From assembly GCF_963675165.1 (NCBI RefSeq), contig NC_087380.1, positions 3,029,803 through 3,093,802 on the forward strand: 64,000 bases of DNA. The letters are read 5' to 3'. A program made the position numbers and the translations under genes. Shown piece by piece: positions 21,345 through 53,800 of the stretch. The number at the start of each line of letters is the position of its first letter. Position 1 is the stretch's first letter. The notes below the pieces were generated by a model that saw only the letters and a list, made by a program, of their open reading frames with translations, ran no database searches and was not told the DNA's origin. The DNA is from Halichondria panicea (Eukaryota; Porifera; Demospongiae; Suberitida; Halichondriidae).

Positions 21345-22470
21345 TCTTGTAATAAAAAGGTATTTAGTGTAGTTGTCTGCTCTGTGGAAAATTTTCTGCT
21401 TCCAGTGCTATAGTGCTGGATTTTGCAGTATGCATCCCATCACCACTACTAACAGGCTCACTCTCAGTATCACTGTCAGTATAGGACTATCCATTGGCAT
21501 TTGCAGAGAGCTCTCAGAGCTGGCACTGTTGGAATGGACAGGTGCATGTGACTATTTAACCCGAATGGAACCCATTTTAAATCAGGGAACTTTGGCCCTG
21601 CATGTTTAGTGGAACGTTCCCTAAACTTCCCATACATTTGTGGGGAAAAGTTCATGAACCGGGTGCACAAGAACCTTTATCTAGCAAAAACTGACTTCAT
21701 GGGTTCTCAGATTGAATACTACATTTCCATATCTATTATGGTATAACGTAGGCACTGCATCCTATATATAGCATTATCTGTGATCCTAGCTAGAAATGCT
21801 GTCGATTCCTCTGACTGATACTTTTGTGCAAAATCAGCAAGTTAATCTCCAGGAGTGTTATCGATGCTGACTGAGACCCTATTACACCATTTATGACCCT
21901 AAACTATTAATACCATTCTGATTTCACATACAAGCATTCTTGCATATGATAAAAGGGTCTTGTGAGTGTGTATGAGCATGACTTATGTCATAGGCTATAT
22001 ACTCACTGTCTGATATTTGTTTAGTGCTGTTAGTGGTTTTGTAACTGCTGCTGTCATGCGTAGGATACATGTAGCTTTTTTGTTTTGTGATATGTTGTAG
22101 GGGAGTCTTTTAGCTACCTTAAGTCTTGTGGCTCTGCCTCTTCAGTGATTCGTAGGTTCCTGTGTCTGATATTATGTTTATTTTATCTGATTAATCAATA
22201 TATCAGACACGACCACATTTTGGTGTATATATTTCATGCATATTTCAGAATTGGGCTCCTTTTTGGAGGTTATGTTGTAATAGGTAGACTAGTCCTATTG
22301 TCGGTTGAAAAATCAGCTTGTTTTACCCATCCGTTCTCCTCCGGCAGCTGTCTGATTATACGTTCTGTCTGATAATTGATACTTTACTCTAGCTTTTATA
22401 CACACATTGATTATAATTATCATGATGATATTTTGCTGCATGCAAATAGTGGGTAATGATCAACCATGAC
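21345..22470. other. Intergenic, no feature supported
   Basis: No ORF with recognisable similarity, no terminal repeats and no RNA-like structure were seen by eye. Confidence 0.4.
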
Positions 22471-22475
22471 TGTTT

Positions 22476-22872
22476 TTAAAAACGATCGATGCCAAAAGTT
22501 CAAGTCTAAAATTAATGGCTGCAAGTCAGCAGAGCCTTGCAGCTCTCTGCTCACTCTTGCAGCTTACCAATAGCTAGCGTTCTAGTGCAGAGCTAACTAC
22601 TAAGTAGAGTAGTAACACTCGGTGAACAAGTTTTGCTACGAACTCTTCTGAAAAGGCTGCAATGGCATTCCAAGTAAGCAAAACTAGGCATAACTCGAGA
22701 ACGAAGCATTATTTTGCAAATCCACGAATTAAAATCCAAGTAAACATGACTAGAAGCCTGTAACTTAGAAACTCTTACTTTCACTTGATTCATCCTTGAG
22801 CAGCTGTAGCGGTCTACACACACACACAAACACACTACCGTATACCTCGCTTGCGCATGCGCACCTAGGCAT
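22476..22872 (-). repeat. Dispersed repeat family R1, copy 2 (inverted)
   Basis: This is the reverse complement of 13.30-13.71 kb, with the same block order (gcatgcgc core, (TG)n, cagctgctcaaggatcaatg, ttgtttcc-like end) and high identity, including aactactaagtagagtagta. An extra gcgcatgcgcac follows at about 22.88 kb. Confidence 0.75.
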
Positions 22873-23150
22873 AACTTGCGCATGCGCACCAGGCATAATA
22901 AAAAAAACAAATAATCACTTCTATATTACGTATTGAAATACTGATGAGATTACGGATTGAGATTTTAAGATTACGTCCCTTATGAAGGGCCACAAGGGCA
23001 ACAATCAACAACGCAATAATTATTGCGACAAAAATAATTATTAAATTTGTTCCTAGTAAAATTTTTTCAATTTTTTTTTATTTTTTTATTTTTGGCTTGG
23101 ACACGCGGTTAGCGTTATTTTAGAGACAAAAGGTTTTGGAGGACAACTTC

Positions 23151-26579: not shown

Positions 26580-26860
26580 CTACTATAGGCATTTCCAGAA
26601 AAACAATTCTTTGTATACTGGACATGACTTACATCACTTGTGATGTCATGCCCTTATTCTGTAGAAGCAAACTAACTTCCTACTATAGGCAATTTCCAAA
26701 AATAATATTTGTACTGGACATGACTTGCATCACTTGTGATGTCATGCCCTTATTCTGTAGAAGCAAACTAACTTCCTAGAGATCTACTAGGCAATTTCCA
26801 AAAATAATAATTGTACTGGACATGACTTGCATCACTTGTGATGTCATGCCCTTATTCTGA
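26580..26860 (+). promoter_or_regulatory. Three tandem upstream repeats, each with a palindrome
   Basis: An about 96-102-base unit is repeated three times directly upstream of the 26929 gene. Each unit carries catgac-tt(a/g)-catcacttgtgatgtcatg, an interrupted palindrome, at 26623-26650, 26719-26746 and 26821-26848. It embeds tgatgtca (CRE/AP-1-like) and cacttg (E-box-like). The last copy ends only about 20 bases before a tatttaaagc box. A single catcacttgtgatg is also at 30768-30781, but the equivalent repeat upstream of the 32034 paralogue is degenerate. A regulatory role is inferred from position and symmetry. Confidence 0.55.
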
Positions 26861-26928: not shown

Positions 26929-29850
26929 ATGGTCGCCAAAGTAGTGCTTCAACTGACCCTAGTGCTTGGCATTATAGCAGTGACAAGTGTCATAGGCCAA
27001 AGGAACATTGCACTGTCAGGCCCTGAGATTGAACTATTGAGGCTTGGCCAAAATCCCAAGCTTCTCGAGTTTGCTGCTTTGACTTTAGAGACAGTAGTAG
27101 TAGTAATTGAAGATCCTGAAGTTGTTGCTGTTGTACAAGAGAATGTCAATGCCAATTTTTGGTGCCTGCCTTGGCTGCAAAATTTTCCTGGAGGATCGAT
27201 CAGATGGTTGTTACAGAGGACAGATGTAATCACTGGTGAGTTACTCCAGTATTATTTATGCAGATGATCACTCAGTCAGACATTTCGAGTTCATGCAAAT
27301 TGTCTAAGTCATGAGTTTATTATATAGCATTCATTTATGTTTTCATTTTCTAGGAGATCCTGTTGCAGGAACTAGTCTTTTAGAGATATCTGGAGAGGAT
27401 CCCTTGTTGCAATTCGGTGGAGACTTTAATGAATGGCTCAATTTAACATCAACGATTCTCGTTCCAGGCGCTGTATCAACTTCCAATGGCTTGTACATTT
27501 GTGAAGTTTGCCTTTTCCGTGGAACGCAATTTGAAGAGTGCCACTTCGCTAACACCTCTCTGCAAGTTATTGGAGGTCCTCCTATTCTTGATGTTGCTAT
27601 TGACAACAGTAAGCATCACACACATCTATACTATAATTATACTGTATGTAACTAGGTGGGTTCAGTTAAGGCCATTTAGTACACTCTCCTCAGTACTAGT
27701 TATGGCTCTATATAATTGTGTTGTGTCAGAATAATTTCTTATTCACGCAACTTTATATTTTGCAGATCCTGTTAGTGTAACTGGTACGGGAATCGACGCT
27801 GAAAATGAGTACTTAATAGGATCTGATTTTTGCATTGACCCGAACTTCCGAGGAATTGTTACTATTCTCTGCCAAATAGTCAATGCTGAATCATACACAA
27901 AAGTATCACGAGCCTTTCCTGTTCCATTCCGTTCATGGTCACTCGATGAGGACTTACTCTACTCAGAATTAAGTACCAGTACTCCAAGCATTGTGGATAA
28001 ACCAGAGTTTTATTTGACGACAGTGGAACGTATGGTGTTGATGCCACAATACTTCTTTCCAGAACCGGTACTTAGCACTCCGCTTGTTGGTCGTCTGCAA
28101 GGTGGAATTCAATTGAACTTTGAACTGTTTAATGCATCGTTTGCTCCTTTATTTGACTCTCTTGGGGCAGCAAGGAGGGCGGCTTACCAGGCTGTGGTCG
28201 GAGCTTGGACTTGTCGGGCAAACAACGCATTTGGATCAGACATGGCAACTTCAAACATCAGAATTTGTACGTGGTACATTCCTAAACGCGTACCAAACCC
28301 TGTGTGCTAGAGTTATAGATGTATGAGTATTATCTTGTTACAGGTGCCGCTCCTGATGTTCAGGTCTGCTCTCGCACCCAGTCCCCACAGACTGGTGATG
28401 TTGTCCCTGTAGGGTGTACTGTTTGCATTCCGGAAGGTGATGTCGTAACGCTGAACTGCACTGGACAGAGTGTGTCGGAGGTATTTTACGAGTGGAGAAA
28501 TGGTGCTGGTATAGTCGTGTCCACCTCACCTCTGCTCACTACTGGTGCTAAAGACAGCTACACTTGTACGGCTACAAACTTAGACCACATACCAGCAATC
28601 TTTGTCTCCATGGTTGCCTGTAAGTGATTGATTTTATGATTTATGAAATTTTATACGCTGAAAGTTTCACTAAAATACCATCACTTCCATGCAGCATTAG
28701 TTGCTAAATATGTATAATTATTCACACCATCGTTTGATGCTATAATTGTATCCTACAGATAGGAATGCTGTCACTTTCACTGTTGTTCAAACTAAAGATG
28801 AATTTTCCTCTTCACTCCGGATGGACAATGGCTCCTCAAGGTATTATGTGTTCTGATACATTTAGCTTTCAAAACATGTGAATATGTAATTCAGGTTGAA
28901 CAACCAGGCTGGACTTGAGAGTGTAGCTGTCTGTGCGTTTGTTGGGGAGACACTTGAGCTAAACTGCGCTACTGATGACAATGCAATGGTTCCGTTAGAA
29001 ATCACAGCTCCTGATGGGAGTATGGCAATTGGATCACTGATTGTGTCGAGTGTGGACATGGGTGACGAAGGAACTTACAGCTGTCGACTGAGCAACGACC
29101 CAGGTCCTTGTGGGCAAGCAACTGAGCAGAGAGAAGTGCGAGTATTTGGTGAGTGCAAAGCCGCCAAAATGAATTAAAAACACTATTTGAAAACCATATA
29201 CGAGAGCATTAACCAACCCAACCATTCTTTCCATCCCAATCTGCTCACTCGTACCATGCACCTGCGAATTCTTGGCATAATTTGAGTTATATTTGCTGTC
29301 AGCAACTTAGAGGTGGGAGGTATAATTACATGTTTACATAGTCTGCTGAGGAATCAATTCATGCATCTTCATTAGATATTGCTTGCACAGTGCAGCTAGC
29401 TTGAGATTGAAGCTTTGTCATTCTACATTATACCTTAGGGTCTACTCCCCCCTCCCGCGTGACTGGTCTCTGCTCTGTTGTGGTTTGGACCACTCCCACA
29501 AGGTCGTATAGGAGGATCACTGGCTATGATGTCAGGTTCGTTTCTCAAGGGTCTGGTTTGGATCTTGTAGTGTCTAAAAGGAGAAGAGAAAATTTCCACC
29601 TCATCAGAGATACAGGACTGACCAGTACAGACAACATCATGGTGCAGGTATACCATTACATGCAGGTATCCAATCTTGTAAATGAGCGTTCTCCAATGTT
29701 CAGGTGAGAGCAAAAACAACAGCTGCAGATGGAAAGTGGAGTGAGCTTGTGCCACTTGGTACGTGTTGGCATTAGCAAATGATCATGAGTACACTCAATT
29801 TATCACCATGAATTTTTATTGCAGGTTGCAAGAATGCTGTAGGATCCTAA
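26929..29850 (+). CDS. Secreted multi-Ig/FN3 protein, receptor-ectodomain paralogue (9 exons)
   Basis: Exons are 26929-27235, 27354-27608, 27766-28266, 28344-28619, 28759-28840, 28895-29148, 29439-29647, 29704-29758 and 29825-29850; phases agree and give 654 residues. Residues 1-24 form a signal peptide (VVLQLTLVLGIIAVTSVIG). Ig-like exons follow (NGLYICEVC; VTILCQIV to GAWTCRANNAFG, with an about 70-residue insert; VTLNCTG, EWRNG, YTCTATN; LELNCAT, GTYSCRLSN). An FN3 exon with VVWTTPTRSYRRITGYDV and a short VRAKT...WSELVPLG exon complete it, ending in CKNAVGS and taa. No TM helix or kinase, so it is probably secreted. It is closely related to the ectodomain of the kinase locus downstream, and its inverted pseudogene lies at 16.7-20.2 kb. 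All reading frames are intact, unlike both relatives. Confidence 0.8.
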
Positions 29851-32033: not shown

Positions 32034-35000
32034 ATGGTCGCTATGGGGCTTCATCTAACGCTGTTGCTTGGCACTGTCGTAGTGACAAGCGTTATAGGTC
32101 AAAGAAACATTTCGCTGTCGGGTCCTGATATAAAACTATTGAGGCTTGGTCAAAATCCCAAGCTTCTCGAATTTGCTGCTTTGACTTTGGAGTCTGTAAT
32201 AATAGTAATTAAAGATCCGGAAGTTCTTGCTGTTGTACAAGAGGGTGTCAATGCCAATTTCTGGTGCCTGCCTTGGCTGCAAAAGTTTCCTGGAGGATCG
32301 ATCAGATGGTTATTCCAGAGGAGAGATGTAATCACTGGTGAGTTACTCCAGTATATTATATGCAGATGATCACTCTGATGACATTTGTCGTACCGAACAC
32401 AGTATACATGAGTTTAATAAATATAGTAGATCTACATGCATTCATTTATTGTTTATTTCCTAGGAGATCTTGCTGCAGAGGTCTGTGGAACTGACCCCTC
32501 GATTCGAATTGGTGGAGAATTTAATGAATGGTTCAATATAACATCAACGGTTCTCGTTTCAGGTGCTGCATCAACTTCCAATGGTTTGTACATTTGTGAA
32601 GTTTGCTTTTCCCGTGGCACGGCATTTGAAGAGTGTCACTTGGCTAATACCTCTCTACAAGTTATTGGAGGTCCTCCTATTCTTGATAAAGCTACTGACA
32701 ACAGTAAGCAAGCATCACACACATCTACTATATATAGGTGGGTAGGGCAATTTATGTAGTAAAAACGTTCCCCTCAGTTGTATAGTTATATGGCTCTACA
32801 TTTCGTCTCGGACTTATTTTTACGCTACTTTATTTTGCAGATCCTGTTAGTGTAATGGTAATTGACGCTGAAACTGAGTACTTAATAGGATCTGATTTTT
32901 GCATTGACTCAAACTTCCGAGGAACTGTTACTATTGTCTGCCAAATAGTCAATGAATGCTGAATCAGACATGAATGTTTCACGAGCCTTTCCTGTTCCAT
33001 TCCGTTCATGGTCACTCAATGGGGACTTACTCTACTCAGAATTAAGTACCGGTACTCTGAACATTCTGGACAACATAGAATTTTTTTCGGCGTCAGTGGA
33101 ACCGGTACTTAGCACTCCGCTTGTTGGTCGTCTGCAAGGTGGAATTCGATTGAACTTTGAACTGTTTAATGCACTGTTTGCTCCTTTATTTGACTCTCTT
33201 GAGGCAGCAAGGAGGGCAGCTTACCGGGCTGTGGTCGGAGCTTGGACTTGTCGGACAAACAACACATTTGGATCAGACATGGCAACTTCAAACATCAGAA
33301 TTTGTACGTGGTACATTCCTATCGGGTGTTAAACGCGTACCGAACCCTGTCTGCCAAAGTTATAAATATGTATATGAATGCATAACTATTGTCTTGTTAC
33401 AGGTGACAATTAATGTTCTCTGCTCTGGCACTCAGTTCCCACAGACTGGTGATGTTGTCCCTGTAGGGTGTACTGTTTGCATTCTGGAAGGTGATATCAT
33501 AACGTTGAACTGCACCAGACAGAGTGTGTCGGAGGTGTTTTACGTGTGGAGAAATGGTACTGGTATAGCCGTGTCAATCTTACCTCTGCTCACTACTGGC
33601 ACTAACGATGAGTACAATTGTACCGCTACAAACTTGGACCGTACTAATACTGCAATCTTTGTTTCCATGGTGGCTTGTAAGTGATTAATTTTCACAGGTC
33701 TGAGAGCGTCTCTATTGCATTTGCTGCTATATATGCATGTGTTCACTGCAGTTTGATTGGTATACTCTACATACAGATAGGAATGCTGTCACTTTCACTG
33801 CTCAAACTAAAGAAGAATATTCCTCTTCAACCCGGATGAACAATGGTTGCTCCAGGTATGTTTCTTGATACATAATTATTATAATTATAGCATTCAAATT
33901 GCTGTTAATAATTCAGGTTGAGCAACCAGGTAGGACTTGAGAGTGTAGCTGTCTGTGCATTCGTTGGGGAGACACTTGAGCTAAACTGCGCTACTGATGA
34001 CAATGCAATGGTTCCGTTAGAAATTACAGTTCCTGGCGGGAGTATGGCCACTGGATTACTGATTGTGTCAAGTGTGGACATGGGTGACGAAGGAACTTAC
34101 AGCTGTCGACTGAGCAATGACCCAGGTCCTTGTGGGCAAGCAACTGAGCAGAGAGAAGTGCGAGTGTTTGGTGAGTTCAAAGCCATGAAAGTGCTTGTCA
34201 ATGAATATAAAAACACTCTTTTGAAAACCATACGAGAGCATAAACCAAACCAATCATTTCTCTGAATAATTATTACATCCCAAACTTTCCTCGTCCGTAC
34301 TGGCTGCGAATTCATTGCACTTAACTCAATAGCTGCTGTCACCAACTTCATTGTTGGTTATGTCGTTTGTTTTCCGATTGATTCTGAGCGTACAGCAACT
34401 CAACAGAAATCACTGAAGCTCATAATGAATTAAGCATCCAATATCCATAATCAGCACATTTATTCAGGGAAACCATCATGCACACAGCCATGCAGTTAAA
34501 GTAAAACGCATGCAGTGGCACAGGACGCCATGCACTATTCAGAATTTGATATACTGCTCTCAGTTGTATTTCCTGAACTTTAAGATAATGTATTGTCATG
34601 GCACTATATAGATGAGTAACTTTTCGGCATTGATATAAATTTGATTATTAACTCAAGACATATATACAGGCAATCCAGGCTTATGTATAATTTTGTCGAA
34701 TTGTGAGCAGTCGTAGGTAGGTAGGTCTACTAATAGTTGTCCCATGCATGAGCACTGCAAATGTTAGTTATTGTAGAGACTGGACTATTACATAAAGCTT
34801 TGATCTTAATAATTCATTTTTGAAACCTGTCTAATGATCAGCAGGTCACCAACCATTATCATGTTTCTCAATTGGCCACCTCTTTTTATTACATGCAGTC
34901 ACTGTTAGTCAACCGGTGAGGTTGCCCCAGGAGCTTCGACTGACCACCAGGAACCTCATCGCCCCCGTAAGTCACATAACCTCTATACCTGATTGTTCCA

Positions 35001-36631
35001 TGGCTTCCCTCTCCATTAGACAAATGGCTTCGAGTACTCGTGTATTGTGAATGGAGTCAATATGACGGCTCAGTATGAGAATGAGACTTCTATCCTGTGT
35101 ATAGTGGGCAGTGGGCAAGTGAGTGGTGAAAAAATGCGTATATAAATAGCAGGAGCGTAGCAAGCAAGTTTAGAGTGCATGAAGTTTAGAGTCACGCCAA
35201 CATAAATTTTATGGCTAGGCAAATTTTTACAAAAGAAAAAGTCGATCTCAAGGCAACTATATATTTCATTATCGATTACAATATCGACATTACCAGGAAA
35301 CCATTGCAATTATACGTATACGACCACTACAAAAAGTGGCCAGGCCAAAACCTGACCAGCCTGTCCGCTTGCTACAGCCTTGCTATATACTGTACAAAAG
35401 TACTGCACAAACATTAGTACCGGCTTGCAGTTAGTTTAGACTACACCTATATTAGGTGGGTGTATTATGCATTTGCTTGACACCTAGTAGTACTGATTAT
35501 TCTGCGTATAGCTCACACTTTTTGCTGGGGTCGGCAGTTCACCCGTGGCTGTCATTGTGAATAACGTCAACCACACACTCAACAACACCATGCAACTAAC
35601 TGCAGGTACCATCCTTATGATCAACCATGCATGCATGCATATTATTATATGCCATGGCCACACATTAAGCTTTACACTACTTCCGGATGCACTCCCCCCA
35701 CACATACAGTGACATTGTATGATTGTCGTGATTTGGCCAGTGGATGTTCAGAATGTATTGCGGCCAGAATGAGGTCAGAGTTCGCATGTGGATGGTGTGG
35801 GAGTAGTTGTGAGGTGATGCAAGAGTGCTCCACTGATATTTTTGTTACTGAGGGCAACAATTGTCCTGCCCCTGTCATCAACTCGTTCACTCCAATGTCT
35901 GGTAAGAATTATATATCCGTACAGTGACTATTTATCTAATTGCCACTATCATGCACTGTCCATATATATATATACTGGTATATTATATGTATAGTGAGGA
36001 AGAGTCTAGCTATCCTTATTTGTAAACACCTATGTTTTTGGACTGAAACATGCTTCCTGTAAGATATTTACAGTTTATGGAACTTTTTTATACAGTATAT
36101 ACTGCCCGAGGGCATAATAATCTTTATTGCTGATTGTGTATTAGTTTCAAGGATCAAATTTCGAGGATCATTACCTAATGGACCAATCAGATTGCAGGAT
36201 TCTACGTGACTGCATTGCATGGGTTCATCACATAATCAATGCACCAGTTTCTTACAATAGTATAATGCAAGCTAAGAGGGTGGTGAGTGTTGCTTCAGGT
36301 TGATTCGATACACAGCCAAAAATCCACAGGGCGTTTCATGCCTGTTAACAGGCCTATTAGATTTCAGCCTGAAATCCATGGTTAGATACAGCAGCCTGCC
36401 TGTGGATTTCTCTCTCTCTGTCTCTGTCTCCTCTCTCTCTCTCTCTCTCGATACAGCAGCCTGCCTGTGAATTAAGCTGCAACTGAACGAGAAAATCAAA
36501 CTGAAGCACCTTTTCAGTCTCTTGGTGAACTTTGTAGCTAAGCGACTCTCTCTGCGCATGCGCATACACTAGCGGGCGTGGATGGTAAAGGCTAAAACAT
36601 GCATGGCTGTATTCAGGACATGGATGTACGT

Positions 36632-37003
36632 AAGGCCCTGATAAATTATGCTCGGAATAATTTTAGCATAATAGGTGTCTAAAGGGCATCCATGTCCATT
36701 TTTGGTAAAGATCATTACATCAAGTGTTGCATAACAATGTATTCATGAAAAAAATGGCTGAAGGTGAATATTTAGAATCAGCCGCCCTTTTAGGAATACC
36801 TAATTATGGATCAGTTCAATTCAGCAAGATAACACGATATATTAATTATGTCTTGAGTCAGTTGTGTGTTGTGTTTATTTCTACATTAATTTTGTATGTC
36901 ACATTTTTTGGGAATAATCAGAGAATAATCAGATTTTTTTAAGCACATTTTCCAAGAATTAGAATAATGGGTGAAAAAAAACATAATTATTTATCAGGGC
37001 CTA
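36632..37003. mobile_element. 372-base MITE with 8-base target-site duplication
   Basis: Ends aaggccctgataaattatg (left) and the reverse complement of cataattatttatcagggcc (right) are inverted repeats. The 8-base word atgtacgt stands directly before (36624-36631) and after (37004-37011). An 8-base duplication is typical of hAT-type transposition. It is intronic in the kinase locus. Confidence 0.75.
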
Positions 37004-37217
37004 ATGTACGTGCTGTAATGGGCCTGTGGTTCCAGGATGTAAGCAGGGCCGTGGGTGATTACATCCGCATACACAGGCCTGTAATCCGGCCCGTATATAT
37101 TCAGCTGATTTTTTCCCAGCCTGAAACAGGCTTATTGGCTGTGATATCATCCAAGTATATTGATCACATCGATCCTGGGTGATATTGATATTACCCAGGC
37201 ATGTACTGCATGCATGT

Positions 37218-37440
37218 ATTTATGCCTTGGTGCGCATGCGCAAGCGAGGTATACGGTAGTGTGTTTGTGTGTCTGTGTGTGTGTAGACTGCTACAGCTGC
37301 TCAAGGATCAATGAAGTGCAAGTAAGAGTTTCTATAGGCTTCTAGTCATGTTTTCTTGGATTTTAATTCGTGGATTTGAAAAATAATGCTTCGTTCTATG
37401 CCATTGCAGCCTTTTCGGAAGAGCACTTAGCCTGTATTGG
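37218..37440 (+). repeat. Dispersed repeat family R1, copy 3 (short)
   Basis: It matches the first half of copy 1 (gcgcatgcgcaagcgaggta, (TG)n, ctgctcaaggatcaatg, ttctataggcttctagtcat, ccattgcagccttttc). It stops at gaagag, beyond which an exon-like sequence with a gtaagc donor (to 37473) begins. Confidence 0.75.
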
Positions 37441-39286
37441 AGGTCTTCCAGCTAATGGGAGCTCCTCCTCTGGTAAGCTAAAATAGTATAGTAAATATAA
37501 AGTATAGCGGGTATAGATCACATTTTCGTGGGTCTAATTCTTCGTTTGTGATTAATTTTCTGGCAACACTTTTTACAGAGAGCTACAAAACGAACAACAC
37601 AGTGACTGAAATGTTTGTAACTTTTTTTGGCCTCAAAAATGTACAGTCTGCTGGTATTATTCTTAACACTGGTTATATAGTTGTTGGTCAAACTACCTAT
37701 TGTCCTGTAACACTAATCTATAGTCTTAATCTATACTTAACCACAACTCCAACCACTCAATGGAGAGGAGAGTATAATTATATGCTCCCTCGCTCAGCTA
37801 ACACAGATGCTGCATGGTGCTGCCCGCACAGATATCCATGCTAGAAGAACTTTACTTTGGAAGGTGTCACAGGATGCATTTTTATCTATTTTACCCAAAC
37901 ACACCCTTAACTGATCCATCATGCATGATAGGGGTACCGTTTGTCTTTTGTCTGCATGGGAGCATGCACAAGAAGGGTAAATACACCACGCTCAACTTTA
38001 CTGATTTATTGTCCATATTCTGACTTTTTGGCTTCCGTCACCTAATATATTTTTGTTTCTGTAATACTTCCTTTCACAATTGAAAAACAAAACTATCCAG
38101 GCCTACGCACCAGCAGCTCCTCCCACCATGTTGACAGCAAGACAGCCCTTCCCCATGCACCCAAGACTGCAAATTGAGCTCTGAGCTGGAATTTTATACA
38201 ACCGTGCATGACTAGGCCGAGCATGAGACTGTGGTTGTTTTATAACGCGCAGCCTTAAGAGCGAGCTGCCTGTATTCAATCCACAGAATTTAATGGGTAG
38301 GGTTAGGTGTATCATGAGTGTATACAGTTTACATATTGCGTACAACACGAGGATTATCATGCTATAATTTTCAGACGTGTTATTAAATTGCATGTGCGCT
38401 ATGTGACCATGTAAAAACATGGAAGGGACTGTATATGCATCTTAACACCGTATTGTAAGATGTATACGTATACTCTCCCCTACAGAGGAGCAACTGCAGT
38501 CTTGGGGAGATTCCCACCTGCAGTGCTGTGAACATTACCACCATCACATGTCCCACTCCTAACCTGTCAGCGACCTCACTAACCGCATTAGACTACGCTT
38601 TAGTGTTTGATGGTGTCCCACCCCACACTAGCAAGCCATCCTATCATCGTTCAATCAAATCCCTCTAACTTCAGACTAGAAACCTCTCAGGTCACTAGTG
38701 GCACATGCAGAGACCGTCATACATATTGTGGTATGTCTTATAGCCAGTACTAACCCTATTATAATTGCTATTGTGGGTGTATCCAGGGTGATAATCTCGA
38801 ATCAGTGGAGAGGGGTGAGATAGAAGTGACTGTGGGAGGGGAGAAGTGTGTCCATACAACTAGTGAGAGAGTTAGTGACATCATCTGTACTGCCCCCTTG
38901 GAGCCACCAGGAGGGGAAAACCCTGCCATCATAAATGTGAGTAACTGTATAATTATGTGTGTCACTGTCCCTTCAGGTGACCGTTGGGAGCAACATCAAA
39001 CAAACATTGGTTGAGCGACTTGCTTACGAGGTGACGACCACTGAACCGACGGTTTCTGTGACTGCTGGAGTTCCTCTGGAGATCATCATCCCATTTTTAG
39101 TGTCATCATCATCTTTGTACTGGTCGTATGTGTACTGATGATAGTTTTCTGCTTCTATCTAAACTCTTGAAGGAAGTCAGTGTCAATTGCTAGGCACCAA
39201 CAAAACATGGAGCTCGTGGCTACTGGGTAAGAAATTATGTGTCAGTCTAGCTGTTCAATTATCTCAATTTTACGTATGACTCACAG

Positions 39287-42200
39287 GATAACTGAAGAGG
39301 TATTTGATGGCAATACTGCACTCGTTAGTAAGTTTCAGCTTTTCTTATCTACGTACGTATTTGTAATCTCTTTTACACGCAATCTTCTGATCTACAGAAT
39401 CAGAACTCGATGAAATTGCCAAGTCCATCCCAGACTCATTCAAAATACCAGCCTCAATATTGAAGCTCTCCAGTACTGCAATTGGACAAGGTAAATTAAC
39501 AAAGATGTACAGTTTATTTATATATGGGATGTCCCCTATACAGGTGAATTTGGTGTTGTGTACAAGGGCGTCCTGACAGACTGGAACAACGTACCTATTC
39601 AGGGGGTGGCTGTAAAGACATTGAAAGGTAACACAATACAATTAGATGTGCATGTCAATCCTAGTATGCTGTCAGCCGAAATATTTCCTAGAGGTTATAC
39701 AGTGGCGAGGAAGCAGGGGGGGCTCCAGAACTCTAGCACTCTTTGTATTTTTTGTGTGCAATGATTGCTCAATTTGCATATTAAATAGATCATTTCACGC
39801 GTGTCTCAGCTCCCCCTCTAATTATGCCTCGAGGCGTAGCCGCACGAGGGATACGGTAAAGCTGACTGTGTGTGTGTCTGTCTGTGTGTGTATTCCAGCT
39901 ATAACTGCTCAACGGTTACAATGCAACGAAAACTAACAGCTTCTATAGGCTTCTAGCCACGTTCTCTTGGATTTTGATTCGTGGATTAGCAAACTAAAGC
40001 TTCTTTCTCGAGTTATGGCTAGTTTGACTCACATTGAAGGCTGTTGCAGTTTCTTCAGAATCTTTCATTGCATCATCTGTTCCCACAAACTTTCTATTCA
40101 ACTTATGAGTTAGCCTTGCACTTAAGCGCTAGCTTTTTGTTGGCTACAAGAGTTAGAAAGAGCTGCTAAAGAAGCTAGCTATTTTAGTAGCCATTATTGG
40201 CAGACACACCCCCTATTCCTGGATGTAGATCTAATGCGCATGCGCGCTCAATACCACGTGTAAGAGAATCCATTTTGCAGAATCAGCAATTTTCTTCTTT
40301 TGAGGTCCAGGTAAGCCACAAACCAACCTTTTCTAGTCTCGAATACCCGCCTCAACCTAAAAGCTTGAGTCTGGTCAAACTCACATATGAACTTTGTTCT
40401 GCACAGTCAGCAAAGTCAAGTGGGCTACACGCCCACAAGCATAGTGATAAAGCCACAAGCCACCGCATGTTAAGGGACAGAACATACACAGAGGGCTATA
40501 TCAGACAGTGTATCAATTAAGGCTAGAAGTTGAAAGCCTACGAGAAAGCCTGAGCTTGAAGCCATCATTGCACAGAGCTAGAGGGCCATGAAACCATGGT
40601 CGACGGTCACATTCGATATTCACATAAATGAGTATTTAGGCTGTTAATTTCGACAAGGTGTTCCAAAGGTCCTGTTGCTAGTCTGGAGAGTTCTAGTATC
40701 ACATCCTTACAACTCTCTCCATGAATTTTCCTACGTCGCCTTCTGCCAGGGGCTAATTCTTTCTACTAGTAACAATCCATGCTGCCTAGGTGCTAGGCCG
40801 TGGCGGTTAGCTATAATGATATTCATGTAGACTATAATTTTATTCATGTTCCACACCCACTTGTGGTCAATTAAATGTCCAAGAAATTCCTGGACACACT
40901 TGAACCAAACCTCAATGTGAGTTTGACCAGACTCAAGCTTTTAGGTTGAGGCGGGTATTCGAGACTAAACCTTTTCTACACAATTTGCTTTACTGTGTTT
41001 AATGTTCATTCAATTGCTAACACATTTGAAATCATAATTATTGCAAATTATTAACCTTTCTATAACACTCTAATACTTTTGAGCAAAAGCAAAAACATGG
41101 CGAGAGGCACTAGTTTAAGCGAGAACCCCCTTTGTCAACACATCTTCCTGCGCCACTGTTCTATAATGAGGTTGTCATTGATTCAGTCCCCTACAATTTC
41201 TGGCCAGCTGCTAATATAACACTCAACTTTGCATTTGTGATGAGTCAGTTAATCATTGTCTACCTTGCAGGTCTGTTCTCATTTTCAGATGTTCAGAACA
41301 TGATGTGTGAAGTGAACAAGATGAAGGACTTCCACCATCCTCACGTCATGTCCCTAATTGGGGTGTGTCTCGATGCTGGCCCCGGTATTGCCATAGTGAT
41401 GCCATATATGGCCAACGGGAGCCTCTTTGACTATCTGAAGAAAGAGAGAGGCAGCTTGGAGCTGGATGATGACTGTGAAATTGATCAGGTCTGTGGTTTG
41501 TATTATTAACGAGTTATATAAGGTTTGTGATAGGTTTGTAATAGACCATATAGACCAGCAAAGGCCTAAGAGTCTATCGGTTAGAGTGCTCATTACAGAC
41601 TTGCTAGCTCAAAGGTCAGTTGTAGAACATTCTCTAATAACATGCATGTGCATACAACTCATGCGCACTAGCACATCTTTACAATATTAAAAATCAATTT
41701 CTGTTCATTAGTAACTCCATTCCAGTTCATTACAAGGGTATGGAAGTACGTACCTCTCTAACGAATACAGTAGCTTCATTTAAAAGTTGTATTTCCGTTT
41801 TTAGTGGGTAAAAAATGCAAACGTTTTTTTACATGTACGATACATTAACGAATTAGTCTGATTGGAAATGGATGTGATAACGTCATAGTTTACTGCAATA
41901 TTCCAGGTCCAGTTAAGCTTCCCTTTGATCTCATCTGCATGCGTTTCGCTTTTTAGCAATAGCGTTTACTTAGCTGCTCGAAAACTCTGCATAAGAGACA
42001 ACCGTTCAGACAGGAATTTTATAAACAGTCTTTACCAGTGCTTTGTGCTGTTATTGGGGGGTAAGCCATGCAGCTCTCATAGCTGTTTTTCTTGATTTCA
42101 TGTAATCATATACTTTTAACAGCCAGCATCATGAAGGTTTATTAGCACAACATCTTCTTTCCTACTTATTAATGGACTGGTAATAATTGTATACTTTAGC

Positions 42201-45200
42201 TGGATTTAGGTTGGCTGTGGCAGAATATGGATCTCACCCAGACACAGGTATTCTGATATTTGGGGTTTTACTCTGACTTGCATCTAAAGGTCCTCTATAT
42301 TAAACCATCGATATAGTACGTACTGCTACTCGTTCTCACAGACACTATTGTATTGGTTCTATATATAGTCTTTGTACAGTCAATGATTCATGTACACACA
42401 GCCTCGATTAAACCGGGGGGAGGGGGGTTGTACGGCGAGGGTGTTTCCGTTTCTAATCCCTATTATTCATGGTTAAACAGAACGTAACGGAACATTTATT
42501 TGAGGGCTGCTACTGTATAATTATTTGTGCATGGGTTTAAAAGTGTGAAGATATAATATCTTAATTCGTGAATAGTTACTGAGTGTTCTAAACAAAGAGG
42601 TGGGTGGGGTTGAATTTTACAGATTATGGCACCACCAAATGATTTTACCAGCTGTCATGCCATTCTCCACAGATTCTGGCAGTGAGGAAACTGCTACTAA
42701 AGATGTGCCATCAAATAACACTGGGAATGGCCTACTTGGCCGAGCAGAAGTTTGTCCATCGAGATCTTGCAGCCAGAAACTGCATGTGAATTAACGATTG
42801 GACTGTATAATTATACGAAATTATAAGAAAATACTATCTTCATCCATAGTTTATTGTTTATATCACTGCCATGCATGGTATATATATATTATACCTTTCA
42901 TTGTAACGTACCCAATGGCATTGGCATTGTAGCAGCATGCCATCATATTATGTCAATAGCGCACTGGTTATGTACTTACTTGACAGTACATGTGCACATG
43001 CACAATTGTCTCAGTAAGGTTTGATCCTATAATATTATTATAGGTTGGACTCGGGAGGGGGTATCAGGGTGGGGGACTTTGGTCTGGCTGAGGACGTCTA
43101 TGCTAGTGGCTACTTCAGACAGAAAGACCGAGCCAATGCGAAGGTCCCCTACAAATGGATGGCCTTGGAAAGTCTCAACGATGCCATCTTCACAGAGAAA
43201 ACTGATGTGGTGAGTCAGTGCGTGGCAGACCCATATTACAGCCTACGATCACAAGTTTAATGCTTCATTTTTGTGAAATGTCTAATAAAGTCATGTAATA
43301 ATTATAGACGTCCTTAACGGGCTCTTTCTTTAACTCAAGTTAGCACTCAAATTTTGCTAACATCCCGTTGTTCATCATCACGTGTTGTCTATGTGCCCAG
43401 TGGTCGTACGGTGTGACTGTGTGGGAGGTCTTCAATGGAGGACGGACCCCCTACCCTGCCGTTGACCCGATGTCCCTCATCCAGCTGCTGGAGGAGGGGC
43501 GGAGACTCGAGAGACCTCTCAACGCAGCCTGTGCCACCGAGATGTGAGTGCACTGAGTTATGTATATATCATTGCAGCCCCTGTTAAGTATCGTTGGCTT
43601 AAATTCTCCTGGTTGAAAGGGGAGGGATGTCATGTGTTTTTCTGTGTCCATTCTATACCATAATAATTATGCTCCCATGCATTATAGGCCCTCTGCCTGT
43701 GTACGTAATTGTACAAGCTCTAATTAATTAGGAGACTTACTTTGGGTTAGGATTTTTACTTCCACTGACCCTACGTATCCCCACCACTCACCCAGTTCTG
43801 TGGTGATGCGAAAGTGTTGGAGGGAGGATCCAGAGGAGAGGCCAACCTTCTCACAACTGTCCTCCATTGTGGAGAGACTACTGACAGCCATCGCTGGCTA
43901 TACTGAGCTCTGTATAGTGCTAGTGGACACCAGTCAAGAGGAGGAGCAGCACCGTAAGTCAGTGTATACTCAAACTTTTACCATAATTGTAATTATATCC
44001 ATAGGATTATATCCATACAAATTTTAGTGTGATAAACAGAAATGCACTGATAAGACTGAGACCATCCTCTAATGTTAGGATTGGCTTGATAATAATATTC
44101 ATATCCCTCTAGAATATGACTACATACCCCCACCCACGGAAGTCCCTCATCACTATGACATCCCTCCGTCTATAACTGAGAGCAGTGCTGACGGCCTCGT
44201 GGATAGTCAAGAGATGGAGGAGCTCAGTAAGTGTAAACTAAAAATTATAAGGATATGCGTGTATTCTTGACATAATTATACACATGTACTATGTATGTCA
44301 CAGCTAGCAATAAGTTTGTTAATGTGTGCACAAAGATAATGCTCAAGGTTACGTATGTAGCTGGAAGGATTACTTTGAGATGGGAGACGACGAAAACTGC
44401 CAGCTGTTATAATATGGAATGGAGTCTTAGTGTAGATTGTGCATGCATGCATGCATGCTGTATTAGCCTCGATTCCAGGCCGCGAAGAAAAAGGCAGCCT
44501 GGTATACCTTGTTGCGCATGCGCGTACATTACCCCAAAAAGGGGATAATCCGTGTATTTGTGGATACTGTCAGTAAAATAAACACGTGTATTCTGGAGGT
44601 GTGTCCGTTACACAGAAGTATTGTGCAAAGATGACTGAGTTGTTACGCCCTTTGTTGTATCAAACCAAGTCTCTACTTAACGACACCCTACACTGTAAGG
44701 CTACAGATGTTATAGGAAGGGCATGATGTGTTCCTGTGGGTCCCCTGATGAGGCTGTGGTAATATGGACCAGGCAAATCTTTTGCTACCAAATCTTGCCT
44801 TTATGTTTAAAGATGAAGATAAAGAAGCTAATGATCACTCCTGAAAGCTTTTAATAAGCTTTAACTCGACACTCGGGAAGTTATTCACTCAAGATCTACT
44901 GATGTATTAAAGAGTCCACCACTTTTCCTAGCTGGAAGCTTTAGCTGTCTGGGAGGCCTTCTTTAACTGCAGAGCTAGAAGAAGCAACACTGTTGCAGCT
45001 TAATTATTCTACTTTAATTAGTGTCTCTGAAAGCTGCCATTGTGGTCATGAACATTTTACCACTAACCACATGGTCACACGTATTCTTCCTTTTTGTAAC
45101 TTTGTTCGTTTTACAATTTGTATGATGACATTTCTGGCATTATTTCGTGCATGCACATATACAAGGTATACCAGGCCGCCTTTCTCTTCGCGGCATGGAA

Positions 45201-45489
45201 TCGAGGCTAATAATTGCTTACTTGAAAATGACTGCTATGCATGGTCACTTTCATGCATATCCATCGTGATCGTAAGTCAATCATTATACTGTATATGCTT
45301 CATCACCTAATAATGTTTGGATGCATCAATGTTTCATTATACGATTGTTTTCTGGCAGACAATGTGCCCATGCTGATGCCCACCGAAGTCCCTCATCGCG
45401 TCGATCTTCCGTCAGTAGACCCTCTAACAACTAAGAACAGCGCTTATGACCTCGGGAAAGAAAATTTAATGACTACAACAGACAATTAA
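39287..45489 (+). CDS. Tyrosine kinase cassette of the PSI/IPT receptor (intact frame)
   Basis: Exons are 39287-39327, 39398-39490, 39544-39627, 41271-41488, 42673-42785, 43044-43209, 43401-43543, 43796-43953, 44113-44226 and 45359-45489, all in phase with no lesion. Kinase marks are G-Q-G-E-F-G-V-V (glycine loop, spanning an intron), VAVKTLK (lysine), MMCEVNKM (helix C Glu), HRDLAARN (catalytic loop), [29 protein letters not shown] (activation segment), WSYGVTVWE and RPTFSQL. The substrate would be tyrosine; HRDLAARN and KWMALES are RTK-type. The tail has YDYIPPP, YDIPPS and AYDLG, possible SH2-docking sites. Introns hold five transposon-like insertions or repeats. It belongs to the locus whose upstream exons are broken, so whether it is expressed is open. 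Confidence 0.8.
39824..40200 (+). repeat. Dispersed repeat family R1, copy 4 (divergent)
   Basis: It has the same block order as copy 1 but a diverged start (gcctcgaggcgtagccgcac). Shared blocks are ttctataggcttctag, ttctcttggattttgattcg and gcgctagcttttt. It lies in the intron within the kinase N-lobe. Confidence 0.7.
40334..40967. mobile_element. 634-base MITE, Mutator-like, 53-base perfect TIRs and 9-base TSD
   Basis: Left arm 40334-40386 (tagtctcgaatacccgcctc...) and right arm 40915-40967 are exact reverse complements over 53 bases. The 9-base word aaccttttc is repeated directly at 40325-40333 and 40968-40976. Long TIRs with 9-base duplications are the hallmark of Mutator-like elements. 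No transposase is encoded. Perfect arms mean a recent insertion. It lies in the intron between the VAVK exon and the helix-C exon of the kinase. Confidence 0.85.
44464..45209. mobile_element. 746-base element of the tagcctcgattcc family
   Basis: Termini tagcctcgattccaggccgc... and its reverse complement extend about 48 bases with three mismatches, including ggtataccttg. The same family forms the perfect palindrome at 23151. The interior has no transposase ORF. It lies in the last intron of the kinase locus. Confidence 0.8.
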
Positions 45490-47823: not shown

Positions 47824-50800
47824 ATGGCTACTGTAACTCTATTTTTCTGCTGTCTGCTTGGAAGTATTTCTCTTGTGCATGGACAGACTTCGTGTGAGTT
47901 GATAAATTATATGCAATACAGTTGTTTTTCCTCTACTAGTCTTACTCTAGTCCAACTTGCTGCATGAATATTAATTGCATTGCATGCATGATGTACAGTA
48001 GCTACAGAAGATAATACAGGCCGCTAGACATCAGGTATAACATGAGCTGTTGTAGCTAATGTTTATATATGACGCGTCTATTTCGACTGCATGGTATCAC
48101 CCGCTAGCACTGACCACACTGAAGATATCATCTCGTTCTCTGATGTTAGATTAGGAGAGGGTAGTAAGTCCACCATCCTGGTACTGCTACACCTCAAACC
48201 TGGTGCTGGTGTATTGTGGGTTCCATAATGGGGATTCATTACATGATCTCCTATTCCAACCAAACTCTGGGTCTAAGCACTATAAATGTCACTTACACCT
48301 GTGACTCGGCTTTGGGATTGGGAAAGCATAACTAGCTAGAATTGTGGGGCAAATAATAGTTGGAGTTCTAGATCTAGCACCTTTTTGGCTTGATGCCAAG
48401 GCGTTGTTTAGGTTGGTGTTATAGGCCACTCTAAATAACAGTTTGCTGTAGCTACATGGCAGGGCAGGACAGATGATGGGTGGGGCGGTAGACACCAGGA
48501 AAGGTAGAACGGTGGGGCTCGCACAAGCTTATCGTTCTAGCTTTTAAGAGTTATAACCAAGGTGAGATAGCTGGGGTAGCATTTTTCTTTCTCATAGGTA
48601 CACTTATTGCACATGCACTTATTGTCTTTACATTAGAATTTATGGCGACGTAAACCATCCTTTGCCTTGAGGCTTGCCAGGGATTCTAGAATCTTAATCT
48701 TGATTGATAATATTATGTCTATATAGTGACTCCTGGTGAAGTAACGATTAACGCAAGTCCATCTAATGTTGGTGTGTTGAATCAAAATGTCACACTAACT
48801 TGTTCTGCAAGTGGTGGAATTGATAACTTCCAGTGGCAAAGACTCGGAATCAATGTTCCTGGAGAAATGCAGTCTACACTATTTCTCACTTCAGTTAATG
48901 CTAGTGATGGAGGAGAGTACACTTGTGTTGTCGGTAATGCAGCTGGTAATGGCAGTACCAATTTCACTCTCTACATTCATCCATACATTGTGGCTAATCC
49001 ACAACGTCAGCTACTTCGAACTGTGGCTAGCAGTGCAACATTCACCTGTGAAGCTTCTGCGTTCCCTGCACCTGACTATCATTGGGACAAAGTTGGAGAT
49101 GTGAAGATCGATAATCTTGATCGATTTAGACAAAACTTCTCCTTTAATCCTATTGCTTTTGGCAATGAAGGCAACTACGTATGTGTTGCTTCAATCATTG
49201 TGGACAATATCAACTACACGGCAGAATCTAAACCAGGAGAGCTTATCTGTAAGTATAATAGCATAAAATTAGATATGAACTTTAAGAGCATGCTGTACGA
49301 ATGCATCCAATCATTATTCTCGTCTAACTGCAGTATCACCTGAGAGTAGTGTGTCTGTCACACCTAATATGTCTAGAACAGTTCAAGGAGACACTCTGAC
49401 GTTCACTTGCTCTGCCATGGGTGGTCCTGGAAATATGTTCTCATGGAGGAGACTGTACGATAATGAAATTGTGGGGGATATGTCTAATCTAACTGTGAAT
49501 GTGAGTGGAGCCACAGACGGTGGACAGTACAAGTGTGAAGTCACCAATATAGCAGGCAGTGATTCTGATAATACTACTGTATACCGTGAGTGTTAAACGA
49601 AACGTTTCACCTATAGGTATGGTCTATGTTTTTAATTGTTCGTCCATCTACAGTTGGTCCGATCATTGACACTCCCCCTTTATCTGTGAATGTGAGCATC
49701 TCTGAATTATCCACTTTCACCTGTTCGGCCAGTGGATTTCCAGTACCTACCATTATCTGGGTCCACAACGGAACACAGGTGAGCTAACTGATTCATTGGT
49801 ACATCATCAATAATATTTGTCTTGCATGGTGCATGTGATTCTTCAGAATCAGGATGATGAGAATCGCACCACTGTGTTATGTACCATGGGAGACAGATCT
49901 GTGACCAGCACCCTCACCATCAATATGGCTATGATTAATGACTCTGGGAAGTATGTTTGCAATGCTAGTAGTCCTGACTATGGCACTGTTTCAACGGACC
50001 CTGTCATTTTAATGGTACAAGGTAAGCCATCTAATTTTTATCAATGGATTTCCGGAGGTTGAGGTATTTTAGTATACCCTGGAATTGTTACTCAGTTCAA
50101 CAAGCCACTAGGGCTAGCTGTTAGTGTACACATGAACCATCTAGTCGTGAATGTTCTCTACAAGTACCACAAAAACATTTGCTATGTGAAAAGTCGCTAG
50201 GATTGGCCGGGGGAAACACCAAAAATCGTAGAAAAAAGAAATCCGATGAGAATATAACTCGAATCCGTTACAACGTCATTCATGCACATGCACGATACAT
50301 CTTAACGAAATGTTTTAATAGTTAAATTGATGGTAGTTTTTCCACCTATAAATTTTGCTGGTTTTCCCAGCCAATCTCCTAACATTGAACGTGCATTTTG
50401 TGCAAGCTATAAGTTAATGTTGAGTTTGCAGTGTTGAGCACAGGCATACATAGTCCTGACTCCTTTTAACATGGAAGTAATGATGTGCATGCATGGTGGA
50501 TGGAAGTATAGTCTATACTGCCTGACATATCGTATTAATGTGATGCTAATGTAATGTATCAACACTTGTTCTCATAACGTTGCATCGGATTGGAGTTATT
50601 CTCTCGCCGGATTTCTTGTTTCTACGCTTTTTGGTGTTTCCCCCGGACAATCCTAGCAACTTTTAACATTGCAAATGTTTTTGTGGTACTTGTTCCCATG
50701 TTTTTTGTGGTCAGATTGTCGAATCAGGAGAGGGTGGAGTGGGCGGTATATCTTCGCAAGGTTGCAGTTTAATATTCAGGTGTTTGATTTATATTAATTT

Positions 50801-53800
50801 TTTTCCTCAGAGAGTGACTATTAATCCACCGCAGCTATAATTATAATCACTTCTCAATCCTTAATTGTCATGATTTATACGGTAGTAATTCGCATAGATG
50901 AGAATCTAGGAAGACAGTAACTTGGAAGACTGAGTACTGAGTGCAACAGATGAGAATATCTGGGAAGCAAACTTGGAAGACAGAGTAACTGAGACTGCAA
51001 CAGTGGTGGAGTGGGTGGAGTGGGTGGAGTGGGTGGAGTGGGTGGGGAATATAGGATGTTAGGGAATCTAAGCTGTATACACTCATGCGAGTGTTATTAG
51101 GATAGGGTATAATTAAAGATAAGAATGTGAAGACAATAACTTGGAAGGGTAGCTAGTTGCAGTTGTTCTGTTTGCGCGATGTGTCTATCGAATACTGGCC
51201 GCTCTCTTATTGAACAATGATGATTCGAGGCCAACCCCGAGCCTCTCAAAGAGTCACATAAAGATGGCGGAATTTTCTAGGTAAAAGAAGTAGAGTCTAA
51301 GAGGTCATGTACCTCGTAAAATCAATCGCAAATCTGAGAAAAATGACCATGTCAGGGGCGGATCCAGCCAAAAATTTTTAGGGGGGTTATAAAACAAAAC
51401 GCGCGTTAGGTAAGTTGAGGGAATGCTTCAGAGTGTAAAGTTACTCATGCATATTGGATGTACACACAGCACAGTACAACAGTATAGATCTATAACTTAC
51501 GACTCAGGAAGCATTCCCTCAACCTATCTGAAAACTTCTGTATGTGTGGAATGAAATTATTGTGTATTGACTACTTAGTGTGTCCTGGACTTGTACTCAT
51601 GTCAACAGATACTAATACTTCATAGTTCACAGCTTGTAAGTTAACCACATTGCTCATTTAGCCACAAGCAACACAAGTGTAGGTTGAGCTAGTTATTGTA
51701 AGTGTTTGGGGGGGTTGCAACCCCTGAAACCCACCCCCTAGATCCGGGCCTGCATGTCCAAGACTGTAGTTGTTAGGAACTGATTGCAGAATATTATGAG
51801 GATGTTAGCTTGTACAACGAGGAAAAGCTTCTCAAGAACCTTACTTACTTAGTCAGTCACTCATTTGCGGTGAAGTACGTGCGATATTAGTGCACTTTTA
51901 GAAATGTCTGTGTATCTATGCATGTGAACGTTTTTTGAATCTTATAACACCAATCATACAAAAGAATAGCTCTACAAACTAGCTGTGCAGTCAGTTTTCA
52001 GATGTGATCCTTCCCTGCAGAGATATAACAGCATAAACTTAAGGAGAAAATACGTGAAAAGTGCTAAAAAGCTACAGAAGTAGTGCCAATCCTAATACAT
52101 ATAATTATTGTTATTATACTTGGTATGTGAGAATCCTCAGGCCCATACATAAATGCAATTAATTTAGCTCTTAGAATGATTGTAAGAGGAGTTGAAATTT
52201 TTCGAGAGTAGTTGTTCATATTTCCGTATCACTGCCTACCTATCGATTAAGTATTCAATATACTACAGATGTTAGTTTATGCCCTTTCAAATTCACAGCT
52301 TGTATTTGTACACATTCAATTTCAGCAACTCCCGAAAGACCACAAAATGCGACAGCTGTAGAAGTGACAAAAACTAGTGTGATATTGGAGTGGGTGGAGC
52401 CTTATGACAACAATGCTCCCATCCGTGGTTACAAAGTCTCCTACACCAGACCATCTTTTCTTGGAGGGACTGCCACGACTATCAACAGCACAGTGGAGAC
52501 TGTAACCATCAATGGACTACACCCTGGAGTAGCTTACTCCTTCTCAGTGGTTGCTTTCAATGACATTGGGGACAGTGCATCTGGTAACGTCGTGGTCACT
52601 ACTGTGGAAACAGGTATGCTTATAAGCAACAAGGCATTTCGAATTACTACAGCTAGATCTATGTAACTAGCTGTCAAGTTACATAAATTAAAGTAACAGG
52701 AATACTTCATTACGTTCACAGTTCCAACAAACCCTCCTGAGAATGTAATGATCACTATGCTATCATCCACTGAGATCCAAGTGAACTGGACTGAAGTTCC
52801 CATGATGCATCGGAATGGAATAATTACCACATATGAAGTGATGTACGAACCAGTGATGACGTTTGATATACTCACTGCAGCCAGAGTGAACACTACAAAT
52901 GTTTCTACTGTTCTTACTGGACTGGAAGAGAATTTAGAGTACAATGTTTCTGTGAGAGCTTATACAAGTGTGGGCCCTGGACCTTATAGCCCAGAGGATA
53001 TGGAAATTACTTTTGATGACAGTTAGTTGATAATTATTAAAATTATTATTATTAATGTATCAATACAGCTCCAGCTAGTCCACCTCAGAATGTGACAGCT
53101 ACTGTGTTGTCCTCTACTGAGATCCAAGTGAACTGGACTGAAGTTGCTGAGATAGACCAGAATGGAGTCATCACTGAATATGAAGTCATGTATGAGCCAC
53201 TAATGACATTTGGTGTGCTCAATACAACAACAATAAGAACAATTAACTTGTTTACTGTTCTCTTTGGGCTGGAAAAGTATGTGGAGTACAACATCTCAGT
53301 GAGAGCATACACACGTGTGGGACCAGGACCCTACAGTGTCGGTATTATAAAGATAACATTTGATGGTGAGTTAAATTTAACTATGAACACACAGAGGGGC
53401 CAGGTCCTCTATTAAACACGGAGCACTCCGTGAACCCATTTAAGTGTCTAAATAACACATCAATATAAATGTTTGGTTGATATGTTCGATAGACTAGACT
53501 ACTTAATACTGGTAGTTTTAGTCTGAGCTATAATAATTGCCCTGACTGCTAAATATTCGAGATTTCATGCTGTCTGAAATTATAGAGAATCTGAAAACAG
53601 AACAAGCCTTTGTTTCGTAAAATTGTCTGATTACAAAGAGCCGGCAGATTAGCACAAAATATTCATTTAGAGTTGGTCACCGAACCCCGTCAGACGTAAA
53701 AGTAGTCTACATTATCGTGTATACTGCTCGTACAAAACAAGATTGCTAATTTCACACTCTATAGATGGCCATGCATGTATAACAACTATAACCAGCGAAA

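What the first reader, a model, noticed from the sequence alone, without database searches (positions are those of the whole stretch)
32034..45489. Receptor kinase locus with broken ectodomain but intact kinase
The ectodomain and TM exons carry at least four frameshifts and three stops (32960, 33411, 39168), while ten kinase exons over 6 kb are open with all catalytic motifs. Either the decay is very recent and clustered, or the kinase is kept for another transcript, such as a soluble kinase or a fusion to another ectodomain.
Basis: partly seen in the sequence, partly recalled or inferred. Interest (0 to 1): 0.75.

Follow-up and report, generated by a model that had tools for sequence, protein, structure and literature searches.

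The report
Recently dead receptor-kinase gene beside GPCR fragment
The kinase half of this receptor gene is readable mainly because the gene seems to have died recently, and part of the supposed broken front end belongs to another receptor family that landed next to it; this is ordinary gene decay in a large, domain-shuffling receptor family.

Summary
Sequence observation: real. The kinase exons (39287-44412) are open with AG/GT splice sites, and the exons upstream are broken by five frameshifts plus one independent stop.

Interpretation: partly right. The locus joins two things. The Ig-type block (32034-34170) is the N-terminus of adhesion-GPCR-type genes and was found upstream of no other copy of this kinase. 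The kinase gene proper starts near 34.86 kb (PSI/IPT-like exons, TM, tyrosine kinase). It belongs to an expanded family (38 TM-exon loci listed) whose members carry different N-termini. The junction lies at about 34.40-34.82 kb.

The open kinase is not clearly unexpected. All four lesions of the receptor-kinase gene missing its kinase half has p about 0.06; all six, about 0.11. On this branch kinase dN/dS is 0.18 (family 0.23; 1 rejected), and its own ectodomain is equally family-normal (0.52 against 0.60). Both halves evolved normally and the gene broke recently. A soluble kinase from ATG 39207 is not excluded, but I have no positive evidence for it. Best reading: a young unprocessed pseudogene beside a GPCR-ectodomain fragment. 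The family's swapped ectodomains are more interesting than the broken copy.

The parts
32034..34170 (+). Ig-type N-terminal block e01-e06 (ATG and a signal-peptide-like start by my reading, unassigned domains, one Ig), fragment of the adhesion-GPCR-type family; frameshifts in e03 and e04
32951..32962 (+). e03 4-bp tandem duplication, absent from the 6 relatives aligned; leads to the TGA at 32960
33403..33425 (+). e04 start, net 5 bp shorter than the tandem copy; leads to the TAA at 33411
34397..34822 (.). interval holding the junction between the GPCR-type fragment and the receptor-kinase gene
   Evidence: homology to L012 ends 34397, homology to L007 starts 34821
34899..35901 (+). receptor-kinase gene exons e07-e09 (linker and PSI-like; PSI 18.7 bits, below the Pfam cut-off), open
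38486..38731 (+). e11 (IPT-region exon): its reading passes through three frames, while 7 of 7 paralogs stay in one
38787..38936 (+). e12, IPT/TIG-like exon (E 0.003, below the Pfam cut-off), open
38977..39226 (+). e13, transmembrane/juxtamembrane exon: frameshift at the T run 39094-39098 and TGA at 39168; 7 of 7 paralogs open
39287..44226 (+). tyrosine-kinase exons k1-k9, all open, AG/GT splice sites
44336..44412 (+). probable last coding exon k10 ending ...NCQLL-stop; read from the window only, no paralog match at E 1e-3
45361..45486 (+). second copy of the C-terminal tail sequence, after the stop
26929..29850 (+). tandem copy of the Ig-type block, open exon by exon, continuing into FN3-like exons and a stop

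Best explanation
A recently inactivated, unprocessed (intron-bearing) duplicate of an expanded receptor tyrosine kinase family, lying directly downstream of a decayed N-terminal fragment of an adhesion-GPCR-type gene. Shown: the two blocks have separate families and separate relatives, five frameshifts and one stop break them, and the kinase exons are intact. Inferred: duplication and recombination in a dynamic receptor cluster placed the GPCR-type ectodomain fragment next to the kinase module. The copy functioned for most of its separate history and then lost its reading frame. The kinase remains open because too little time has passed for the few random lesions to hit its half of the coding sequence. 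No product is needed to explain it.
For: Own relatives of each block. The Ig block is followed in L010 by FN3-like exons (my reading) and a GPS motif (Pfam E 9.1e-7), and a 7tm_2 match lies just past the fetched end of L010 and of L011 on the right strand (GPS was not tested in L011). Junction interval 34397-34822. Lesions absent from paralogs: 7 of 7 kinase relatives are in frame through e11 and e13, 6 of 6 Ig-block relatives lack the e03 duplication. Lesions outside the kinase: 4 of 4, p 0.058; 6 of 6, p 0.115. Kinase omega on the window branch 0.181 against 0.226 background (p 0.58) and ectodomain 0.515 against 0.598 (p 0.64): no difference from the family in either half. A truncated copy L006, with k5-k8 and no k2-k4 in the 6.9 kb held upstream, is also open, so open exons do not by themselves show function.
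Against: Omega of 1 for the kinase on this branch is rejected (p 5.5e-6), so it was constrained for most of the branch. p 0.058 is borderline, and at 2% neutral divergence an unhit kinase would have p 0.04 (assumed indel rate). Of 38 TM-exon loci listed only this one is split into two frames, so copies broken there are not common in the family. No expression data were available. The T-run frameshift is of a kind that can be an assembly error.
Confidence: 0.77

Rival explanations
1. The kinase is kept as a soluble tyrosine kinase: transcription starts downstream of the broken exons and translation starts at the in-frame ATG at 39207, after the stop at 39168, giving a kinase of 408 residues without membrane anchor.
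For: An in-frame ATG follows the stop and the frame is open from there to the stop in k10. Kinase omega is low. Only 4 of 319 compared kinase positions carry a residue found in no other copy, none at a motif that I recognise as catalytic.
Against: That Met is an ordinary juxtamembrane residue: 6 of 7 paralogs have Met there. The window's kinase dN/dS is not significantly lower than the family's (p 0.58). No promoter or transcript evidence was obtained. Skipping exon e13 alone breaks the frame (250 nt).
Confidence: 0.09
2. A chimeric receptor gene: the GPCR-type Ig block spliced in phase onto the PSI-IPT-TM-kinase exons, made by recombination, perhaps alive on other haplotypes, with this haplotype carrying a null allele.
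For: The block lies about 0.7 kb upstream of e07 on the same strand, and the e06 and e07 boundaries read as phase 1 (sequence). The family pairs the same kinase module with several different N-termini (same-transcript membership inferred).
Against: Both parts carry frameshifts. No second copy of this juxtaposition was found. No cDNA.
Confidence: 0.1
3. Assembly errors: the lesions are consensus artefacts in a living gene.
For: The e13 frameshift is in a T run. Paralogs could mislead an assembler.
Against: The other lesions (a 4-bp tandem duplication, a 5-bp net loss, two frameshifts in e11 and a substitution) are not homopolymer errors. They coexist within about 6.2 kb, while 7 of 7 kinase relatives are in frame through e11 and e13.
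Confidence: 0.04

Closest known systems
Unprocessed (duplicated) pseudogene of a receptor tyrosine kinase
   Same: Keeps introns and splice sites; several frameshifts and a stop; relatives in the same genome that are open over the same exons
   Different: Nothing that sets it apart, except that it abuts a fragment of another receptor family
MET / RON and Met-LP receptor tyrosine kinases
   Same: PSI- and IPT-like exons before TM and a tyrosine kinase; among single-domain PDB matches HGF receptor (MET) chains score best (216.8 bits)
   Different: The top row is an EGFR chain with two kinase stretches of about 156 bits each; MER, AXL and RET score nearly as well as MET, so the kinase is not placed. 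No Sema domain was detected, not even in 8 C12 relatives. PMC6374515 (abstract and passages seen) reports Met and Met-LP only in Bilateria
Adhesion GPCR with Ig and FN3-like ectodomain
   Same: Block e01-e06 is 77% identical in DNA to L010 over its length, and 78-86% to L011 in three pieces; L010 runs on into GPS, and 7tm_2 lies beside both
   Different: Here the block ends after e06 and is followed by the receptor-kinase exons

Membership tests
Unprocessed pseudogene | Disabling lesions relative to open relatives | tested here: met
   5 frameshifts and 1 stop
Unprocessed pseudogene | Introns retained | tested here: met
   AG/GT boundaries of the kinase exons
Unprocessed pseudogene | Neutral evolution since inactivation | tested here: inconclusive
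   Whole-branch omega 0.18; the time since the lesions is too short to resolve
Unprocessed pseudogene | No functional product | not testable with these tools
   No RNA or protein data
Functional soluble kinase gene | Open kinase frame with its own start codon | tested here: met
   ATG at 39207, 408 residues to the stop
Functional soluble kinase gene | Own transcript or promoter | not testable with these tools
   No RNA data; I ran no promoter scan
MET/RON family | PSI and IPT domains before the TM segment | tested here: inconclusive
   PSI 18.7 bits and TIG 18.0 bits, both below the Pfam cut-offs
MET/RON family | Sema domain | tested here: not met
   No candidate exon seen in the window's kinase gene. 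None by Pfam in 8 C12 relatives at E up to 10, the one family listed being an unrelated match at E 0.19; the PDB profile search gave three weak unrelated chains
MET/RON family | Kinase groups with MET in a tree | not tested
   phmmer only
Adhesion GPCR (for block e01-e06) | GPS and 7tm_2 downstream of the block in relatives | tested here: met
   L010 GPS; 7tm_2 at C4:3593970 (+) and C4:3622671 (-), next to L010 and L011; GPS not tested in L011
Adhesion GPCR (for block e01-e06) | GPS and 7TM downstream in this locus | tested here: not met
   Followed by receptor-kinase exons; the 7tm_2 rows inside the window lie upstream, at 12948-13163 and 14615-14941 (capped list)

The most novel reading that the evidence does not exclude
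The locus records an ectodomain swap between two receptor classes, an adhesion-GPCR N-terminus recombined in phase onto a receptor tyrosine kinase module. The kinase survives under selection as a soluble or alternatively headed kinase after the chimeric ectodomain failed.
Probability: 0.08. Interest if true: 0.6.

Novelty: new member of a known kind. Interest (0 to 1): 0.24.

Why it matters
It is a worked example of how an intact-looking kinase in a broken gene can arise with no function, and of how neighbouring receptor families get fused when a locus is read by eye. The wider pattern would be worth a study of how receptor diversity is made: one PSI/IPT-TM-kinase module with different N-termini on different contigs, and one Ig block found with GPCR-type, FN3-then-stop and kinase neighbours.

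Tried and rejected
Gene conversion keeping the kinase open: no support. The window's synonymous divergence from the family is not reduced (mean pS per exon in k4-k8 0.15-0.36 for the window against 0.16-0.29 among the other copies), and the kinase and ectodomain trees both place L001 next to it.

A hidden near-identical intact copy: not found. The best full-length Ig-block match besides itself is the tandem copy in the window (79%); outside the window it is 77%. The best long match to the 3' kinase stretch is 76% over 922 of 1377 bases.

Truncated copies as controls: L004 first looked truncated, but its TM exon lies just beyond the fetched end, so it was dropped as a control. L006 stays.

Sema domain in the C12 relatives: my first reading of the sequence; Pfam and a PDB profile search give no support, so I do not claim it.

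Literature: searches. Searches returned no paper; of the titles listed in the others none names this locus or this sharing of an ectodomain. Searches gave the papers from which I saw passages.

Full report
What is there. The window is G000:C4:3029803-3093802, in a 131-Mb assembly of 39 contigs. From 39287 to 44226 nine kinase exons are open in one frame with AG/GT boundaries. A probable tenth exon (44336-44412) ends with a stop; it was read from the window only, with no paralog match. The product matches PK_Tyr_Ser-Thr with E 1.9e-81. Upstream exons are broken. Against relatives I count e03 +4, e04 net -5, two frameshifts in e11, one in e13 at a T run, and a stop at 39168.

Two genes, not one. 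A genome-wide DNA search with 32034-34170 gave 19 matches including itself, all on C4 (3.05-3.63 Mb) or C9. The kinase family is on C12, C5, C2 and C4, with more distant relatives elsewhere; the lists of these calls are capped. I fetched nine relatives of the kinase gene (L001-L009). Seven reach e07 and hold sequence upstream of it: L001 0.75 kb plus 8 kb in L014, L002 4.2 kb, L003 3.6 kb, L005 0.1 kb, L007 1.6 kb, L008 2.6 kb, L009 2.9 kb. None shows e01-e06 there. L004's fetched stretch does not reach the TM exon, and L006 holds only k5 onward. By contrast the block begins genes that run on, in L010 and L011, into FN3-like exons (my reading). L010 has a GPS motif, and a 7tm_2 match lies just beyond each fetched end on the right strand (C4:3593970 + and C4:3622671 -). 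L013 on C9 has the block and, 4.6 kb on, an open frame with a 7tm_2 match. In the window, homology to the GPCR-type copies runs to 34397 (L012) and homology to kinase relatives starts at 34821 (L007) or 34857 (L001). The junction is therefore within about 425 bp.

The kinase family and its heads. One search lists 38 TM-exon loci by my count of its rows; the list is cut off, so this is a minimum. Only the window's TM exon is split into two frames. By my count 20 of the 37 other rows carry stops. The seven of them that I hold (L001, L002, L003, L005, L007, L008, L009) are open through e11 and e13, so there the stops lie outside the exons; the other 13 I did not examine. N-termini differ. C12 has an exon of about 318 residues that no library named (29 near-full-length copies, my count), followed in L008 by a PSI repeat. 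Two C5 copies have Sushi and SRCR (L002) or FN3 and SRCR (L003) upstream. L007 (C2) and L001/L014 (C4:3.54) have other exons that Pfam did not name or that I did not test. That these exons belong to the same transcripts as the kinases is inferred from order and strand.

Is an open kinase surprising? Coding lengths are 1614 (Ig block), 1162 (own ectodomain and TM) and 1206 (kinase) (two exon ends there are off by one base). Chance that all four lesions of the receptor-kinase gene miss the kinase: 0.058. All six: 0.115. One search printed 0.118 and 0.165 for 3 and 5 lesions, before the second e11 frameshift was seen. The split was chosen after the fact.

Selection. Pairwise to L001: kinase dN 0.024, dS 0.171; own ectodomain dN 0.112, dS 0.236. 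The ectodomain gave 0.515 against 0.598 (p 0.64), with omega 1 rejected at p 0.03. So the ectodomain is as family-normal as the kinase, which is against selective retention of one half and for a recent death of the whole. From the approximate profile the upper bound of kinase omega is near 0.37, which allows roughly a fifth of the branch to have been neutral (my arithmetic). The lesion count needs about 0.013 substitutions per site if frameshifts occur at 0.1 per substitution (assumed). These agree. In 28 of 28 paralogs compared, the kinase exons k4-k8 that were found had no stop, but these loci were picked from the best matches. The window kinase has 4 residues of 319 seen in no other copy; L001 has 5.

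Mechanism, committed. Duplication and recombination in a receptor-rich region put a GPCR-type ectodomain fragment upstream of a kinase-gene copy (junction shown; process inferred). The copy then lost its frame (shown); its kinase persists by recency (inferred, about 0.77).

Known comparisons. In the PDB list the first row is an EGFR chain with two kinase stretches; next come MET chains (216.8 bits), with MER, AXL and RET close behind. Membership in MET/RON is not established and no Sema domain was found. PMC6374515 (abstract and passages) describes Met and Met-LP in Bilateria only and, for the sponge it surveyed, plexins and semaphorins. PMC8662651 (passages) describes extracellular domain shuffling among receptor kinases as a general theme. 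PMC8242945 (passages) reports receptor tyrosine kinases and GPS-bearing GPCRs in a sponge. I do not name the species of the window; I ran no test that would identify it.

Noticed in passing
window 17742-19357 (- strand): A further broken copy of the Ig-type block (e02-e04, with e03 and e04 in several frames, plus a scrap of the FN3-like exon).
   Followed up: partly
window 26929-29850 (+): Tandem copy of the Ig-type block, open exon by exon, running into FN3-like exons and a stop; I saw no TM or kinase exon before the next block. Possibly a secreted protein or a truncated GPCR gene. A roughly 102-bp repeat (2.8 copies, 26580-26859) sits just upstream.
   Followed up: partly
C12:4.55-5.58 Mb (L008, L009, L034-L041): Large array of kinase-family genes with an N-terminal exon of about 318 aa that neither Pfam nor a PDB profile search recognises, followed in L008 by PSI. 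A structure prediction could tell whether it is a diverged Sema propeller; that would bear on the published view that Met-type receptors are bilaterian.
   Followed up: partly
L006 (C5:1834 kb): Kinase copy with k5-k8 and no k2-k4 in the 6.9 kb held upstream, still open: a natural control for open exons without function.
   Followed up: partly
window 45361-45486: Second copy of the C-terminal tail after the stop; tail-like sequence occurs twice in L003 as well, so it may be an alternative last exon of the family.
   Followed up: no
window 13296-13875, 22445-22874, 37217-37397, 39823-40169: Pieces of a dispersed repeat shared with L001 and L014, two of them inside introns of this kinase gene.
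   Followed up: no
window 11550-14941: GPCR gene with 7tm_2 matches at 12948-13163 and 14615-14941 on the + strand, downstream of tandem Ig exons.
   Followed up: no
window 20388-20719: 33-bp tandem repeat, 10 copies, open in several frames on both strands; probably a minisatellite.
   Followed up: no
window 48711-58504: Ig and FN3 receptor-like exons; the last FN3-like ones (58185-58504) are 70-76% identical in protein to those after the 27-kb Ig block, another sign of exon sharing.
   Followed up: no
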